Origin: Arctopsyche grandis | Taxonomy: Eukaryota; Arthropoda; Insecta; Trichoptera; Hydropsychidae | Reading direction: 5' to 3' | Assembly (NCBI RefSeq): GCF_051622035.1 | Contig: NC_135367.1 | Coordinates: forward strand, 26,614,001-26,678,000 | Length of the DNA: 64,000 nt | Part shown: piece after piece, positions 5,731 through 10,997 of the stretch | Position numbering within the stretch: position 1 is the stretch's first letter | Layout of the letters: every line of letters begins with the position of its first letter | Program-made: the position numbers and the translations under genes | The notes under the pieces: model-generated | What the model saw: only the letters and a program-made list of their open reading frames with translations | What the model was told of the DNA's origin: nothing | The model's database searches: none

Positions 5731-6196
5731 TGTTATATACCTCGCTTATCAATGTAGTTCCCACAATAATCAAATTCACTTTCTCACATTCATATACGTG
5801 AGTAACAAGTCCATTAAAATTCCTGTAAAGGGATAGTCAGATAAGACAGGAGCGCCGGACTTTGCTCAACCCAAAAAATAAAAATCATTTATATAGATCA
5901 CGATTCGATCACATAATTGAGTCATCACCATCGAGACTCCGAGAGTGGTCGTCATTAACATCGACTCCACAAGTGACGGTCGGCACAGCAGCAGAACAAA
6001 TTGAACCAAAGTTAATGAGTGAAACAAAGTTTTACGTATCTCATTTTAAATTCATCATCGTTTCATAATTAAATCAGTATTTTTCGAATATATCTACCAA
6101 TAACATAAATGTAACGTTTTTATGATAATAATTAAATCTTCGTTTGTTAATCAAGTAATTTAAAAAAATATATAAACTGCGTTTTGGAACATAACA
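5731..6196 (+). mobile_element. Diverged solo LTR of the gag-PR-Env element family
   Basis: This 466-bp block begins TGTTATATACC and ends GGAACATAACA. It aligns over its whole length with the minus-strand sequence of the 466-bp LTRs at 6209-6674 and 10432-10897, for example around tttatatagatcacgattcg and cagcacagcagcagaa. Its divergence from them is obvious by eye. It runs in the opposite orientation and ends 12 bp before the complete element. No clean target duplication is visible. Confidence 0.85.
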
Positions 6197-6208
6197 ATAC
6201 ATATGTAC

Positions 6209-6674
6209 TGTCACGTTCCAGGGAGATATTTATTTAAAATCTTATTTACTACTTGGTTAACCAACCAAGTTTCTTTATTGTTATTAAAATGTTACAGTTA
6301 TCTTATATTCTAGATATATTCGAAAAACCGATAGATAATGGAACTATGATTTTTATAATAGGAGACACGTAGAACTATTTCACTATAACTTTCGTTCACT
6401 TTATTCTGCTGCTGTGCTGATCGTTAATTGAGGACGCGTTCTCGGAGTATTTACGATGACGACTGTCACTTTCTGAGTCGATGATGATGACTGACTAATG
6501 CGGTCGAATCGTGATCTATATAAATGATTTGTTATCTTATGGGCTGAGCACATTCCTGTGTTATCTGAATATCCTATTACAGGAATTTTTATGGTTTTGT
6601 TATTCACGTATATGAGCGTGTGAAAAGTACATTTGATATTGTGGGAACTCAAGTGATAAGCGGGGTACATAACA
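6209..6674 (-). repeat. 3' LTR of the gag-PR-Env element
   Basis: Reads TGTTATGTACC...GTGACA on the minus strand. It contains a TATATAGA box (plus 6515-6523 area), an initiator-like TCAGT about 30 nt further on, and an AATAAA signal near plus 6271. It is the same length and apparently the same sequence as 10432-10897. A short AATGGGGG polypurine tract abuts it at 6675-6682. Confidence 0.95.
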
Positions 6675-6717
6675 CCCCCATTGTTAAGAAACTTATTAAT
6701 ACATAAAAATTAAGAAG

Positions 6718-8865
6718 TTAGCCGCTTATGGCATTTAATATTTCTTCTCTAGATCTAATTTCTGGTTCGATTTGAACTATTTCTACTTCGTTTTCTACGT
6801 TATCTCGTGGTTTTCGATTATACTTTACATTAAATCTTTTCTTATCTCTAAAACATTTATAAAGATGAAAACTTATTTTAACTAGCATAAGTATAACAAT
6901 AGTAATTATTATTCCATAAATTAGCTTTACAAAAAATGAGGACTGCTTTACAATGGCTGGCTGATTTTGATAGTTTTCTAATTTATCGTTAAATTTTTCA
7001 AATGTCTCTAGGACTTTCTGAGTGTTTGTGTTATCTACATTTATTAATTTTATAGGATCTAGTTGATGTAAACTATAATTTGTTTTTCCTATAACACAAC
7101 ATTTATCATTTATTATATTTATATTTGACATTGGATTTTCATATTCAGTAAAAATGTTATTATCAGCATTTAAACTTATTAAGCCATTATTCGTTTTACA
7201 TCCTTTATCTAACTTTATGATTCCTGTTTGGAATAATTCAACATATTCATTCTTTTTATTCTTACAATTAATTGTTAATTTCTTACTTTCCGACAAGGTA
7301 TATAGCCATCTGTTGTTAGTTAATTTTTGCCATAGGTCTATTTTACCTTTAACATTTCTTGTGTTACAATATTCAGGTATATTCTTAGTAACATCTTTTA
7401 GCAATTTTGTTTCACAATGTATTTCACTTAGTGTGGAAAGTATATTTAATTTATTACATATAAAAATTTGATTAATAATATTCTTACAATTATTTTCTAA
7501 ATTATCAAAAATAGTATAACTCATATCGTCGACTGATACTCCAATGTATTTATATGTTGGTATTATGAGTGAGTATATGTCTGTATCTGTATGAGGTATA
7601 GGTAAAGGGTAAATTTTATATAATTTATATTTATTTTGTTTTAATTTAATTTTTACTGTTGGTTTACACCACAATATTTTATTTGTTATTCGAAATTTAG
7701 GTTTATTACCACGTTCAATTATTTTCCTTTTCGTATTTATTTCCGCATTAGTAGCGTTATTTATTTTTATAATCAATTTATCTATGAAAATATCTTTTAA
7801 CATTTTAACGAATCCATTTTTAATATTACGGTTAATTCCGTTTATTTTCCCTTTAACTTTTATTTTCACCTTTTTATTTTTAATTAATAGATTGCACAGG
7901 AAATCATCTTCTGGCAATTTCATATCAATAGATTTTATTTTAATATCGCAATTAACAATTTTTTCATTGTATACGAATAAATTACATTCCTGCGGCTCAG
8001 GAATTTTAGGAAAACATTCCAATGACTTTTCAATTTCGTCATTACATAATTTTAATTCAGGTGATTTAATTTCGATTTCAAAGTTCTCATTATTTATTTC
8101 GGGAATAGAAATATTATTTTTATTTTCAAAATTGTCTTTATCTTCTTCATTTATAGGATCGTTTGTTTTATTTTCAAAATTTTCATCATTCATTTCGGAA
8201 ATAGGAATATTACTTTCATTTTCAAAATTATTTATTTCCGTAGATATTGATATTGGTTTTAATTCGACTTTCAAATTATCAATTCTCAATTGTTGATCGG
8301 TAGTATTGAGAGTAGTACAAAGAGTTTCATTATTTTCATTTGCGTTGACTAAATAAACGCCTTCTTGATTAAGTTCGTCATCGATAATTTCGCTTTTTAT
8401 TATCTCCGGATTTGTTATTTCAACTTTTGTAATCGTTTCCGTTCGAGGTTTTACAATATAATTATTTAGAATTTCGTCATCCTCATTATCTTTGTTATTA
8501 TTAAGAAGATCAATTTTTATCGTTTCGTTGATAATAAGTTTGTTTATTTTATAACAAATTTTAGCCTGATTAATTTCAAAGAAGTCAGCGCCAATTATAC
8601 CGTCATATGTGGTATCGATTTCATCGTCTTTCATAATGTATACTTTGTGATGAGCAAACTCTAAATTTAGATGTATGCTTCCTATTGATTCGGATATTGA
8701 ACCTTGGTTAATACCGTTAATTGTAATTTTATCATTTTTATTGTAAATAGTTTTTTCATCTAAGCACGATTCTTTTATTATGGAGATCCCTGCTCCTGTA
8801 TCAACTAGAAAATCTCTAGGAATAAATTTGTTATTATTTTTAATATCAATTTTAATATGTTTCAT
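6718..8865 (-). CDS. Protease fused to envelope-like C-terminal half (pol/env remnant)
   Basis: 715 codons from an internal ATG. The frame is open 29 codons further upstream to the slippery site in gag, so it is probably made as a Gag extension by -1 frameshifting. Residues 20-35 hold the aspartic protease signature VDTGAG and residues 90-95 the matching IIGADF. Residues 140-205 resemble the linker that precedes RT in gypsy polyproteins. Residues about 212-280 carry four degenerate NFEN-type repeats. After about 400 the sequence looks like a gypsy/F-type envelope: Cys-rich blocks, a W-x(n)-C-x-TGII-L-GC stalk pattern, a membrane span near 644-672 and a 43-residue basic/acidic tail. RT, RNase H, integrase, signal peptide and fusion peptide are missing. 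The envelope assignment rests on pattern, not on a search. Confidence 0.8.
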   Translation of the reverse strand: MKHIKIDIKNNNKFIPRDFLVDTGAGISIIKESCLDEKTIYNKNDKITINGINQGSISESIGSIHLNLEFAHHKVYIMKDDEIDTTYDGIIGADFFEINQAKICYKINKLIINETIKIDLLNNNKDNEDDEILNNYIVKPRTETITKVEITNPEIIKSEIIDDELNQEGVYLVNANENNETLCTTLNTTDQQLRIDNLKVELKPISISTEINNFENESNIPISEMNDENFENKTNDPINEEDKDNFENKNNISIPEINNENFEIEIKSPELKLCNDEIEKSLECFPKIPEPQECNLFVYNEKIVNCDIKIKSIDMKLPEDDFLCNLLIKNKKVKIKVKGKINGINRNIKNGFVKMLKDIFIDKLIIKINNATNAEINTKRKIIERGNKPKFRITNKILWCKPTVKIKLKQNKYKLYKIYPLPIPHTDTDIYSLIIPTYKYIGVSVDDMSYTIFDNLENNCKNIINQIFICNKLNILSTLSEIHCETKLLKDVTKNIPEYCNTRNVKGKIDLWQKLTNNRWLYTLSESKKLTINCKNKKNEYVELFQTGIIKLDKGCKTNNGLISLNADNNIFTEYENPMSNINIINDKCCVIGKTNYSLHQLDPIKLINVDNTNTQKVLETFEKFNDKLENYQNQPAIVKQSSFFVKLIYGIIITIVILMLVKISFHLYKCFRDKKRFNVKYNRKPRDNVENEVEIVQIEPEIRSREEILNAISG

Positions 8866-8909
8866 GGGGTTATCGCTCGGGTTTAATTTAAAACAATAAG
8901 AGTCATTAA

Positions 8910-9944
8910 CTAGTCTGTTCGATTGACTCGGGCTTCGACAGACGGAATTAAGTTTAAATGATTGACCTTATTTTTATCTCTTTGTTCTTTATTTTGCCGT
9001 TTGTAGCAATTCTCAAATGTGTGTCCTTTTAAATTACAATAAGTACATGACTTTGGTTGGTCATAACTTCTGTTATATTTATCGATTTTATTATAACCGT
9101 TTTTATTTTGATCAGTTTTACTGTACTGACGATTTGGTTTAAAACCCGCATTGTTTTTATTATTATATCCATTTTTATAATTATTATTATTGTTGCTAAA
9201 ATTTTTATGTTCATCATTATTTCTATTATTTTCCCATGTCTTGGGGCGCGTCTCAACAGAGTGGACTTGTCGATTTCTACTGTCTTTATTCTTGAAACAT
9301 GCATTGCTTGAATGTCCTTCTCGACCACAAATGTTGCAATTTTTGTTTCTTGCAGTATCAGTCTCTATTTCTAGAGCTGTTTTATACGCATCTAAGAGAG
9401 TTTTTGGGTGAGTAGAATAAAATACTATCCGCGTTTGTTGACATTTATTTCCGTGAATCATCCTTTGAAGACTAAGTTCGTCAATTAATTTTATTTGTCC
9501 GTTAAATTCGTCTGCTTTGGACTTGATGTTACAATTTTGTATGCTTTTAATAAGGGAATTTGTCGCGGTTTGAATACGATTCATAAATTTAGTTACGTCT
9601 TCGTCATGTCGTTGCTTCAATTGTTGAAGTTCCAATAATAATGTAGAGTAATTTTTATGGGGACTATAATTTCTAACAAGCGCTTCTTTTATACTATTGA
9701 AATCTCTAGTATTTATATTCGATATAATTATTCTTGCAGATCCCGTAATTTGAGATACAATGTAATTTAATAATATTTTACGTTGGGATTCCGATGCTAA
9801 TATGAGAGCATTCTCACAGTCATCGATGAATTCGTACAATGGTATTGAACTACCATCATACCTTTTTATGAATTTAGTGAGTGTGTTGAAGTCTATTACT
9901 TCCTGAATCACAACTTCACCTTCACTATCCTTTTTAGGAGGCAT
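8910..9944 (-). CDS. gag: Gag polyprotein (retrotransposon)
   Basis: 344 codons, ATG at 9944, stop at 8912-8910. Residues about 15-200 form an all-helical capsid-like region of the gypsy Gag type, with the conserved YIVSQITGSAR and LELQQLKQRHDEDVTKFMNRIQ stretches. Two CCHC zinc knuckles follow at residues 203-216 (C-x2-C-x4-H-x4-C) and 300-313. They are separated by an Asn/Lys-rich low-complexity linker, as expected for a nucleocapsid. The frame is intact. It would assemble particles and package RNA. A T TTA AAC slippery site lies at codons 328-331, 14 codons before the stop. Confidence 0.92.
   Translation of the reverse strand: MPPKKDSEGEVVIQEVIDFNTLTKFIKRYDGSSIPLYEFIDDCENALILASESQRKILLNYIVSQITGSARIIISNINTRDFNSIKEALVRNYSPHKNYSTLLLELQQLKQRHDEDVTKFMNRIQTATNSLIKSIQNCNIKSKADEFNGQIKLIDELSLQRMIHGNKCQQTRIVFYSTHPKTLLDAYKTALEIETDTARNKNCNICGREGHSSNACFKNKDSRNRQVHSVETRPKTWENNRNNDEHKNFSNNNNNYKNGYNNKNNAGFKPNRQYSKTDQNKNGYNKIDKYNRSYDQPKSCTYCNLKGHTFENCYKRQNKEQRDKNKVNHLNLIPSVEARVNRTD
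8952..8958 (-). promoter_or_regulatory. -1 ribosomal frameshift slippery site
   Basis: The minus strand reads TTTAAAC, phased in the gag frame as T TTA AAC (His329-Leu330-Asn331), the canonical X XXY YYZ arrangement. After slipping, the next codon begins at 8952 and runs 29 codons without a stop into the ATG of the protease-envelope frame. The -1 frame has a stop just upstream of the site, so slippage must occur in this short overlap. I saw no strong downstream stem by eye. Confidence 0.8.
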
Positions 9945-10404
9945 TCTTAGAATTTAAATATCAGCAACTAAGTTTGTATTGTGTGTTTGTGTAATGTGTG
10001 AAGTATCAGAAGACTTACACTAATACAATTTCCATATTGATGTTGGTTGTTCTTGGTCTCGAAAATCTGGGAAGGTCCTTGCGAGGTTGTAGGATGTAGA
10101 ATCCGCCGTAACTGCTACGTTTTTTCGCCGTTGGTTTAAAATTATTATTTTTTTATTTTTATTAAAACTGAACTGTACTTCCGAACGTCACTAATTCACT
10201 CAAGAGCAATAAATGCTGATTCCCTCGGGAATGATAGATACTAAGATCTAATCTGAATAGCTACGTTTTTTGGAATGTTTAAGTTCACGAAATTTATTAA
10301 GATTTAATATCTTATTTAGCACTTTCACTTTTTGGGAATTTTTCCTCTTTTTAAAACTTTCACTTATCCTTGCACGGATATTTTTAATTTAAACCAATTG
10401 ACTC
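9945..10404 (-). other. Untranslated leader of the retrotransposon
   Basis: AT-rich sequence between the primer binding site and the gag ATG, with no open frame of note. It probably holds the packaging signal, which the sequence alone does not show. Confidence 0.5.
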
Positions 10405-10422
10405 ATCCCACCGCTGCCACCA
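10405..10422 (-). promoter_or_regulatory. Primer binding site, tRNA-Leu type
   Basis: The minus strand reads TGGTGGCAGCGGTGGGAT, 9 nt inside the 5' LTR. It is the complement of an ATCCCACCGCTGCCA end plus CCA, which is the 3' end of eukaryotic tRNA-Leu as I know it. The exact host tRNA should be confirmed. Confidence 0.8.
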
Positions 10423-10431
10423 AAATTATCA

Positions 10432-10897
10432 TGTCACGTTCCAGGGAGATATTTATTTAAAATCTTATTTACTACTTGGTTAACCAACCAAGTTTCTTTA
10501 TTGTTATTAAAATGTTACAGTTATCTTATATTCTAGATATATTCGAAAAACCGATAGATAATGGAACTATGATTTTTATAATAGGAGACACGTAGAACTA
10601 TTTCACTATAACTTTCGTTCACTTTATTCTGCTGCTGTGCTGATCGTTAATTGAGGACGCGTTCTCGGAGTATTTACGATGACGACTGTCACTTTCTGAG
10701 TCGATGATGATGACTGACTAATGCGGTCGAATCGTGATCTATATAAATGATTTGTTATCTTATGGGCTGAGCACATTCCTGTGTTATCTGAATATCCTAT
10801 TACAGGAATTTTTATGGTTTTGTTATTCACGTATATGAGCGTGTGAAAAGTACATTTGATATTGTGGGAACTCAAGTGATAAGCGGGGTACATAACA
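10432..10897 (-). repeat. 5' LTR of the gag-PR-Env element
   Basis: 466 bp, apparently identical to 6209-6674. It carries the same TATA box, initiator and AATAAA signal. Transcription would start here and run leftwards. Confidence 0.95.
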
Positions 10898-10997
10898 GTA
10901 CATATATGCATGTACAAAAATATTTTTTGAGTTAAATATCTTTATTTATTATCTACTTATTTATAGGTGTATACCCATTTATTTTATTATACATGAT

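What the first reader, a model, noticed from the sequence alone, without database searches (positions are those of the whole stretch)
6209..10897. LTR retrotransposon with gag, protease and envelope-like parts but no RT, RNase H or integrase, and apparently identical LTRs
Seen: two 466-bp LTRs with no difference found by eye, a GTAC duplication, a 344-codon gag and a 715-codon second frame, both open. The second frame passes from a VDTGAG protease and the pre-RT linker straight to an envelope-like stalk, membrane span and tail. Known: gypsy-type elements need RT and integrase. Inference: this is a recent copy of a non-autonomous family that is packaged and integrated in trans while keeping its Gag and a membrane-anchored Gag-protease-Env product. 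Non-autonomous elements usually lose coding capacity, so open frames of this layout are unusual and may mean selection, for example a particle supplied to or interfering with the autonomous partner.
Basis: partly seen in the sequence, partly recalled or inferred. Interest (0 to 1): 0.88.

Follow-up and report, generated by a model that had tools for sequence, protein, structure and literature searches.

The report
Caddisfly retrovirus-like element lacking its polymerase
A caddisfly genome holds a family of retrovirus-like jumping elements that lost the enzymes needed to copy and insert themselves, yet have spread recently and keep two long genes open, apparently by using and recombining with an intact relative.

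Summary
Window 6209-10897 (minus strand) is an LTR element with identical 466-bp LTRs, a GTAC duplication, a 344-codon gag and a 715-codon second frame (ORF2) without RT, RNase H or integrase. It is not a one-off: I followed 13 copies in the host assembly (matched to the caddisfly Arctopsyche grandis); in 13 of 13 the 4-bp flanks agree, and 18 of 7,062 LTR-pair sites differ. A relative with PR, RT, RNase H, integrase and a baculovirus-F-like env shares leader, primer site, PPT, gag (99% nt) and the C-terminal env (99%). ORF2 does not pass straight to env: codons about 217-411 combine relic Pol-linker repeats with a segment shared with a second RT-less LTR family. Fixed differences from the relative (gag 0, PR 0, linker 39, env 1) indicate exchange in the flanks around an older private core, also seen in decayed copies. 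A slippery TTTAAAC predicts a Gag-PR-chimera-Env product; the Env remnant lacks signal peptide and furin site. Selection on the private core is suggestive only. Best reading: a trans-mobilised element like IAP I-delta-1 and cattle ERVK D-type, with an unusual retained chimeric coding layout.

The parts
10432..10897 (-). 5' LTR, 466 bp, TGTTAT...GTGACA
6209..6674 (-). 3' LTR, identical to the 5' LTR
10898..10901 (.). target-site duplication GTAC (5' side of the element)
6205..6208 (.). target-site duplication GTAC (3' side of the element)
10403..10422 (-). primer-binding-site-like TGGTGGCAGCGGTGGGATGA, 9 nt inside the 5' LTR; same in the relative P1
   Evidence: tRNA not identified here
8910..9944 (-). 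gag, 344 codons plus stop, with two CCHC knuckles (residues 203 and 300)
8952..8958 (-). slippery TTTAAAC in the gag/ORF2 overlap, read T TTA AAC in the gag frame; a possible downstream pseudoknot (GAGTC/GACTC) is seen by eye only
   Evidence: that this heptamer is slippery is recalled
6718..8865 (-). ORF2, 715 codons plus stop (open frame from 8967)
8479..8865 (-). ORF2 codons 1-129: retropepsin with DTG intact
8218..8478 (-). ORF2 codons 130-216: pre-RT linker; 39 fixed differences from the autonomous-type loci, all from about codon 145 on
8044..8217 (-). ORF2 codons 217-274: 48-nt repeats related, in frame, to the linker between RNase H and integrase in P1 Pol
7633..8043 (-). ORF2 codons 275-411: segment shared with a second RT-less LTR family (N2)
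6721..7632 (-). ORF2 codons 412-715: C-terminal part of a baculovirus-F-like Env with membrane span (from residue 644) and tail
6675..6710 (-). polypurine-tract region (AATGGGGG next to the 3' LTR), same as in P1

Best explanation
This is a recently inserted copy of a non-autonomous insect endogenous-retrovirus (errantivirus-like Ty3/Gypsy) family, here called N1. SHOWN: it has the cis sequences of an env-bearing relative (LTR ends, primer site, PPT, leader) and its gag, but no polymerase or integrase; 13 copies share the layout and have agreeing 4-bp flanks; gag, PR and env are hardly distinguishable from the relative's while a linker-and-chimera core is private and much more diverged. INFERRED: its RNA is packaged into particles with the relative's (helped by its own nearly identical Gag), reverse transcribed and integrated by the relative's enzymes, and template switching in mixed particles refreshes gag, PR, env and LTRs. 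INFERRED: -1 frameshifting makes some Gag-PR-chimera-Env protein. [quoted passage not shown] this last step I hold at only about 0.4, and the first two rivals dispute it alone. The Env remnant is a passenger or an assembly tail rather than an entry protein.
For: ORF2 1-715 full length in 9 loci, partial in others; 13 of 13 copies with agreeing 4-bp flanks (c2 by eye, after one extra base in its 5' LTR), LTR pairs with 0-5 differences including gaps, 4 of 13 identical. Relative P1, searched in pieces: RVP, RT, RNase H, H2C2, rve, Baculo_F, LTRs 649/649 identical, same primer site and PPT. c1 vs P1 nt identity: leader 98, gag 99, ORF2 nt 1-615 91, env part 99%. N1 (11 of 13 copies used) vs autonomous-type loci (up to 7 per region): fixed differences gag 0, PR 0, linker 39, env 1; shared polymorphisms 7, 2, 0, 5; 403 of 780 informative site pairs within N1 show all four gametes. 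Trees: linker splits the two kinds once, gag and PR mix them (three changes each). The env part of c1 is nearer to P1 (dS 0.023) than to old N1 copy L041 (0.089). TTTAAAC in 12 of 12 N1 copies and 5 of 5 autonomous-type loci scanned.
Against: No expression, particle or mobilisation data here; gene conversion could also give the mosaic. The AU test does not reject one autonomous clade for gag (p 0.32), though it does for PR (p 0.032); in env the two kinds are apart once, support 36. Copy c10 has no gag or PR codons 1-175 yet near-identical LTRs and agreeing flanks, so coding is not strictly needed unless that deletion came later. Gag is broken or absent in 5 of 13 copies. Silent-change excess is modest: ORF2 among young copies P 0.058, N1 vs N2 middle P 0.06-0.26. 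The heptamer was not found in old loci L042 and L043.
Confidence: 0.72

Rival explanations
1. Pure parasite: N1 moves in trans but its frames have no role. They are open because the copies are young and because recombination with the relative keeps re-supplying intact gag, PR and env pieces. (Disputes only the role of the protein.)
For: LTR pairs differ at 18 of 7,062 sites; gag and env are about as close to the relative as to each other; ORF2 singletons look neutral (N 37 including one stop: S 13); only 7 of the 32 multi-copy ORF2 variants lie in codons 217-411 (N4:S3); N1-N2 middle not significantly constrained; L040 middle P 0.13 and L041 linker P 0.46.
Against: The private core cannot be refreshed by the relative, yet ORF2 is uninterrupted in 9 of 13 copies. 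Multi-copy ORF2 variants are S-rich (N18:S14, binomial P 0.033; Fisher against singletons 0.15). L041 middle P 0.017; codons 130-411 against L040 P 0.0066 and L041 P 0.030. The joins linker-repeat, repeat-middle, middle-env and the later env deletion all keep frame (1/81 by chance, counted after the fact and on an element chosen for its open frame).
Confidence: 0.4
2. Interference element: the Gag-PR-chimera-Env product poisons or redirects the relative's particles, as a selfish or host-tolerated restriction factor. (Disputes only the role of the protein.)
For: A nearly identical Gag could co-assemble, and a Pol-less Gag extension at the same frameshift site would take the place of Gag-Pol (inference).
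Against: N1 depends on the relative, so strong interference would harm N1; no data on expression or effect.
Confidence: 0.12
3. One-off internal deletion or assembly error.
For: None beyond the missing domains.
Against: 13 copies at separate sites with agreeing flanks; same linker-repeat-middle order in old copy L040 and linker-middle order in L041; NCBI model P0001 of 715 aa equals copy c4. All this is from one assembly.
Confidence: 0.02
4. Retrocopy of a spliced env mRNA.
For: Insect ERV env is typically made from spliced RNA (PMC12992720 passages).
Against: The junction holds gag, PR, linker, Pol-linker repeats and a segment of another family, not one splice.
Confidence: 0.02

Closest known systems
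IAP I-delta-1 (mouse)
   Same: Non-autonomous LTR element with an internal deletion that leaves an in-frame fusion ORF; needs gag and pol in trans; fusion protein reported to act in cis (PMC6466679 passages; the primary paper, Saito 2008, is not held).
   Different: IAP lacks env and its deletion joins gag to pol; here gag and PR are whole, RT to integrase are lost, and foreign sequence plus Env is fused.
Cattle ERVK[2-1-LTR] D-type, with ETn/MusD and RecKoRV
   Same: Central segment of a competent ERV swapped for an old piece of retroelement, flanks with portions of gag and env kept; D-type outnumber C-type; C/D recombination in the flanking segments with near-perfect linkage next to the swapped part (PMC10924933 passages).
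   Different: D-type members are described as without intact GAG, PRO, POL and ENV ORFs; here long frames are open. Insect host.
Drosophila insect ERVs (errantiviruses, e.g. ZAM, rover)
   Same: Baculovirus-F-type env in the relative; recombination between rover variants (PMC12992720 passages).
   Different: Most rover insertions are described with a defective env and intact gag and pol; here the env C-terminus is kept and pol is lost.
Rice non-autonomous endogenous pararetroviruses
   Same: Lasting partnership with regulatory sequences homogenised by recombination (PMC5491270 passages).
   Different: Plant pararetroviruses; the homogenised part is noncoding.
TR-GAG, LARD and TRIM elements
   Same: Non-autonomous LTR elements; TR-GAG keeps gag (search listings, and recall).
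   Different: No PR-Env fusion frame that I know of (recall).

Membership tests
Non-autonomous LTR retrotransposon | Two LTRs with target duplication | tested here: met
   13 of 13 copies followed (c2 by eye)
Non-autonomous LTR retrotransposon | No RT, RNase H or integrase | tested here: met
   for the window's copy
Non-autonomous LTR retrotransposon | Relative with full pol and the same cis sequences in the genome | tested here: met
Non-autonomous LTR retrotransposon | Mobilisation in trans | not testable with these tools
   inferred from young multi-copy insertions
Insect ERV / errantivirus-like (for the relative P1) | gag, pol with PR-RT-RH-IN, and baculovirus-F-type env | tested here: met
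   (pieces searched apart)
Insect ERV / errantivirus-like (for the relative P1) | Spliced env mRNA | not tested
   no RNA data
Insect ERV / errantivirus (for N1 itself) | Complete pol and env | tested here: not met
   pol incomplete; env without signal-like stretch, furin-like site or the sequence after it
IAP I-delta-1-like cis-acting fusion element | In-frame fusion ORF kept in most copies | tested here: met
   ORF2 uninterrupted in 9 of 13
IAP I-delta-1-like cis-acting fusion element | Fusion product raises mobilisation in cis | not testable with these tools
Coding element with a selected private core | Silent-change excess over a spectrum-matched neutral model in codons 130-411 | tested here: inconclusive
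   some P below 0.05, others not; overlapping and uncorrected

The most novel reading that the evidence does not exclude
Two separate RT-less LTR families in this genome (N1 and N2) share a lysine/isoleucine-rich coding segment that was not detected in the relative P1 or at the loci of the second env-bearing family F2. It could be a domain of non-autonomous elements that lets their RNA or protein exploit the particles of an insect retrovirus, carried from one 'cheater' family to another and kept in frame inside a Gag-protease-Env polyprotein.
Probability: 0.2. Interest if true: 0.85.

Novelty: new variant of a known kind. Interest (0 to 1): 0.6.

Why it matters
It gives an insect case of the central-segment swap described for cattle, mouse and koala endogenous retroviruses, with the relative, older stages and a family sharing the swapped-in segment in one genome. 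It keeps long open frames across an old private core, so whether such elements need their own protein in cis becomes testable by comparison across caddisflies and by expression data. The pattern of fixed differences (gag 0, PR 0, linker 39, env 1) is strong evidence of exchange with the relative in the flanks only.

Tried and rejected
Two AlphaFold2 models (env part, mean pLDDT 45.0; codons 1-411, mean pLDDT 27.7) were too poor, so no fold search was run. The middle segment is not recognisable as part of P1 Pol or Env (shuffle z -1.3, -0.3, 1.1). A protease-like reading of N2 is weak: z 2.8, 4.0 and 3.0, and in each test the best shuffle scored higher than the real alignment; the same holds for an N2 C-terminus/RNase H-end match (z 3.6). 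The stem after the slippery site is not significant (z -1.41; 16 of 200 shuffles fold as well). NCBI models P0002 and P0003 put introns inside copies (c6-like and c5-like); I have no RNA evidence and do not use them. The protein search with ORF2 gave 3 proteins, all Arctopsyche grandis, with only the 7,997 candidates sharing most words scored, so relatives in other species are untested rather than absent. The tRNA assignment could not be tested. LTR copy number is a lower bound: 40 of 983 candidates were scored. In one search some linker values are outliers (up to 0.579), probably copy c10 out of register; one search leaves out c10 and c13. One search used 8 of 13 copies for ORF2 and 7 for gag (rows with indels left out).

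Full report
Observation. The element at 6209-10897 lies on the minus strand. Its 466-bp LTRs are identical and flanked by GTAC. Gag (344 codons) and ORF2 (715 codons) are open. Pfam finds Retrotrans_gag in Gag (below cut-off), RVP in ORF2 (above cut-off) and no RT, RNase H or integrase; the relative's Pol pieces match nothing in the window except ORF2. Gag carries two CCHC knuckles.

Host. ORF2 is 99% identical to LOC143910291 of Arctopsyche grandis, on a contig whose length equals that of contig C4 here, and copy c4 on C4 encodes that protein exactly; by this match the host is that caddisfly (Trichoptera, Hydropsychidae). The window is C13:26614001-26678000.

Copies. ORF2 is full length in 9 loci and interrupted or partial in others. 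I followed 13 copies (c1 is the window's). In 13 of 13 the 4 bases next to the two LTRs agree (c2 by eye, after one extra base in its 5' LTR), with seven different 4-mers; LTR pairs differ at 18 of 7,062 aligned sites, gaps aside, and 4 of 13 pairs are identical. ORF2 is uninterrupted in 9 of 13 (open frames of 714-749 codons), gag in 8 of 13, both in 6 of 13. So this is a young multi-copy family (N1), not a one-off deletion.

Relative. P1 at C2:32.655-32.665 Mb has gag, a 1492-aa pol frame and a 623-aa env frame, identical 649-bp LTRs and GTAC flanks. Searched in pieces it has RVP, RT, RNase H, H2C2, rve and Baculo_F (E 7.5e-52). Leader, primer site and PPT agree with N1. Among the 120 best of 5,975 Pol relatives the named ones are from moths and butterflies, beetles and an ant, at 39-66% identity over 27-99% of the query; most listed have no name.

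Chimera. c1 and P1 agree at 98% (leader), 99% (gag), 91% (ORF2 nt 1-615) and 99% (env part). Codons about 213-274 hold 48-nt repeats related in frame to the stretch of P1 Pol between RNase H and the integrase zinc-binding domain (z 8.4; domains). Codons 275-411 match neither Pol nor Env of P1, but match the C-terminus of the ~620-aa ORF of another LTR family, N2, at 50-53% aa in four N2 copies and 38% in a gapped match to a fifth, and at 74% nt over 192 bases. The N2 copy in L053 has identical 647-bp LTRs and GAGG flanks. P1 Pol pieces match none of five N2 loci and two N2 ORFs scanned have no Pfam RT. The genome search with N2 gave 51 matches: N2-like loci, N1 middles and some short ones that I did not inspect. 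The direction of transfer between N1 and N2 is unknown.

Older stages. Decayed copy L040 has linker, repeats and middle in the same order and then Env from about residue 184; L041 has linker, middle and Env likewise but lacks most of the repeats. The young family has lost Env residues about 190-320 in frame. L056 has gag, PR and middle fragments in order. So the core arrangement is older than the young burst: c1-L041 and c1-L040 middle dS 0.15 and 0.35.

Recombination. With 11 of 13 N1 copies and up to 7 autonomous-type loci per region, fixed differences are gag 0, PR 0, linker 39, env 1, and shared polymorphisms 7, 2, 0, 5; 403 of 780 informative site pairs within N1 show all four gametes. 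Silent divergence c1-P1 is 0.01 in gag, 0.10 in PR, 0.71 in the linker and 0.02 in env. Trees: one change of kind in the linker, three in gag and three in PR; the AU test rejects one autonomous clade for PR (p 0.032), not for gag (p 0.32); in env the kinds are apart once, support 36. Short and long LTR types occur in both kinds. Template switching between co-packaged RNAs would give this; gene conversion between DNA copies is not excluded.

Expression. Gag and ORF2 overlap in the -1 frame with T TTA AAC, present in 12 of 12 N1 copies and 5 of 5 autonomous-type loci scanned, and in old loci L040 and L071, but not in old loci L042 and L043; in family F2 the heptamer occurs but no matching overlap was found. 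The following stem is not significant and a GAGUC/GACUC pairing is seen by eye only. ORF2 has one strong hydrophobic span (from 644), no other peak and no RxKR/RxRR; P1 Env has an N-terminal hydrophobic stretch and a furin-like site at 119. PDB sequence search links P1 Env 23-492 to a solved 'fusion protein' (9w4d, E 5.9e-26) and ORF2 410-584 only to its later part (E 5.1e-11). I infer that the Env remnant cannot work as an entry protein.

Selection. Among young copies: gag omega 0.40 (P 0.015, 7 copies), ORF2 0.65 (P 0.058, 8 copies) against a spectrum-matched neutral model. ORF2 variants in two or more copies are N18:S14, singletons N37 (one a stop):S13; against the neutral share P 0.033 and 0.63, Fisher between them 0.15; only 7 of those 32 lie in codons 217-411. 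Private parts against old copies: L041 middle P 0.017, L041 linker 0.46, L040 middle 0.13, L040 linker 0.005; codons 130-411 L040 0.0066, L041 0.030; L040 vs L041 0.022. c1 vs P1 linker: N19:S24, none of 5,000 draws as S-rich, but one branch is the relative's. N2 residues 491-622: P 0.008-0.075 in four comparisons sharing one sequence; N2 1-290 and the whole N2 ORF near neutral in N:S, with few stops. N1 against N2 middle: P 0.06-0.26. Tests overlap and are uncorrected. The joins of the core keep frame. I call this suggestive.

Mechanism. Trans-mobilisation by P1-like elements is the best reading (inferred). [quoted passage not shown]

Known context. The closest pattern is cattle ERVK D-type with ETn/MusD and RecKoRV (PMC10924933, passages). 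In the literature searches the rows listed (up to 20 per search, often a small part of the hits) showed no insect family of this layout; of four papers I saw passages (one more id was not held), of the rest listings only, and most subscription journals are not held.

Noticed in passing
window 5731-6157: An older LTR-like stretch (76-77% to the element's LTR, opposite orientation) ends about 50 bases from the element's target duplication.
   Followed up: partly
L053 (C13:9967600-9973600) and L051, L052, L054, L055: N2, a second LTR family with a ~620-aa ORF and tandem 117-nt repeats, no RT found; 13 loci with long N2 matches.
   Followed up: partly
C2:20559090-20566344 and similar loci: F2, another env-bearing family with pol frames of about 1498 aa and env frames of about 627 aa, 43-51% identical to N1 parts.
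   Followed up: no
C4:11.27 Mb (copy c5): NCBI model P0003, named ZMYM1-like, joins gag and PR codons matching copy c5 to other coding sequence: a mis-annotation or a chimeric transcript.
   Followed up: no
flanks of N1 copies: Five of 13 copies sit at GTAC, three of them inside ATATGTAC|GTACATAT, which hints at a palindromic target preference.
   Followed up: no
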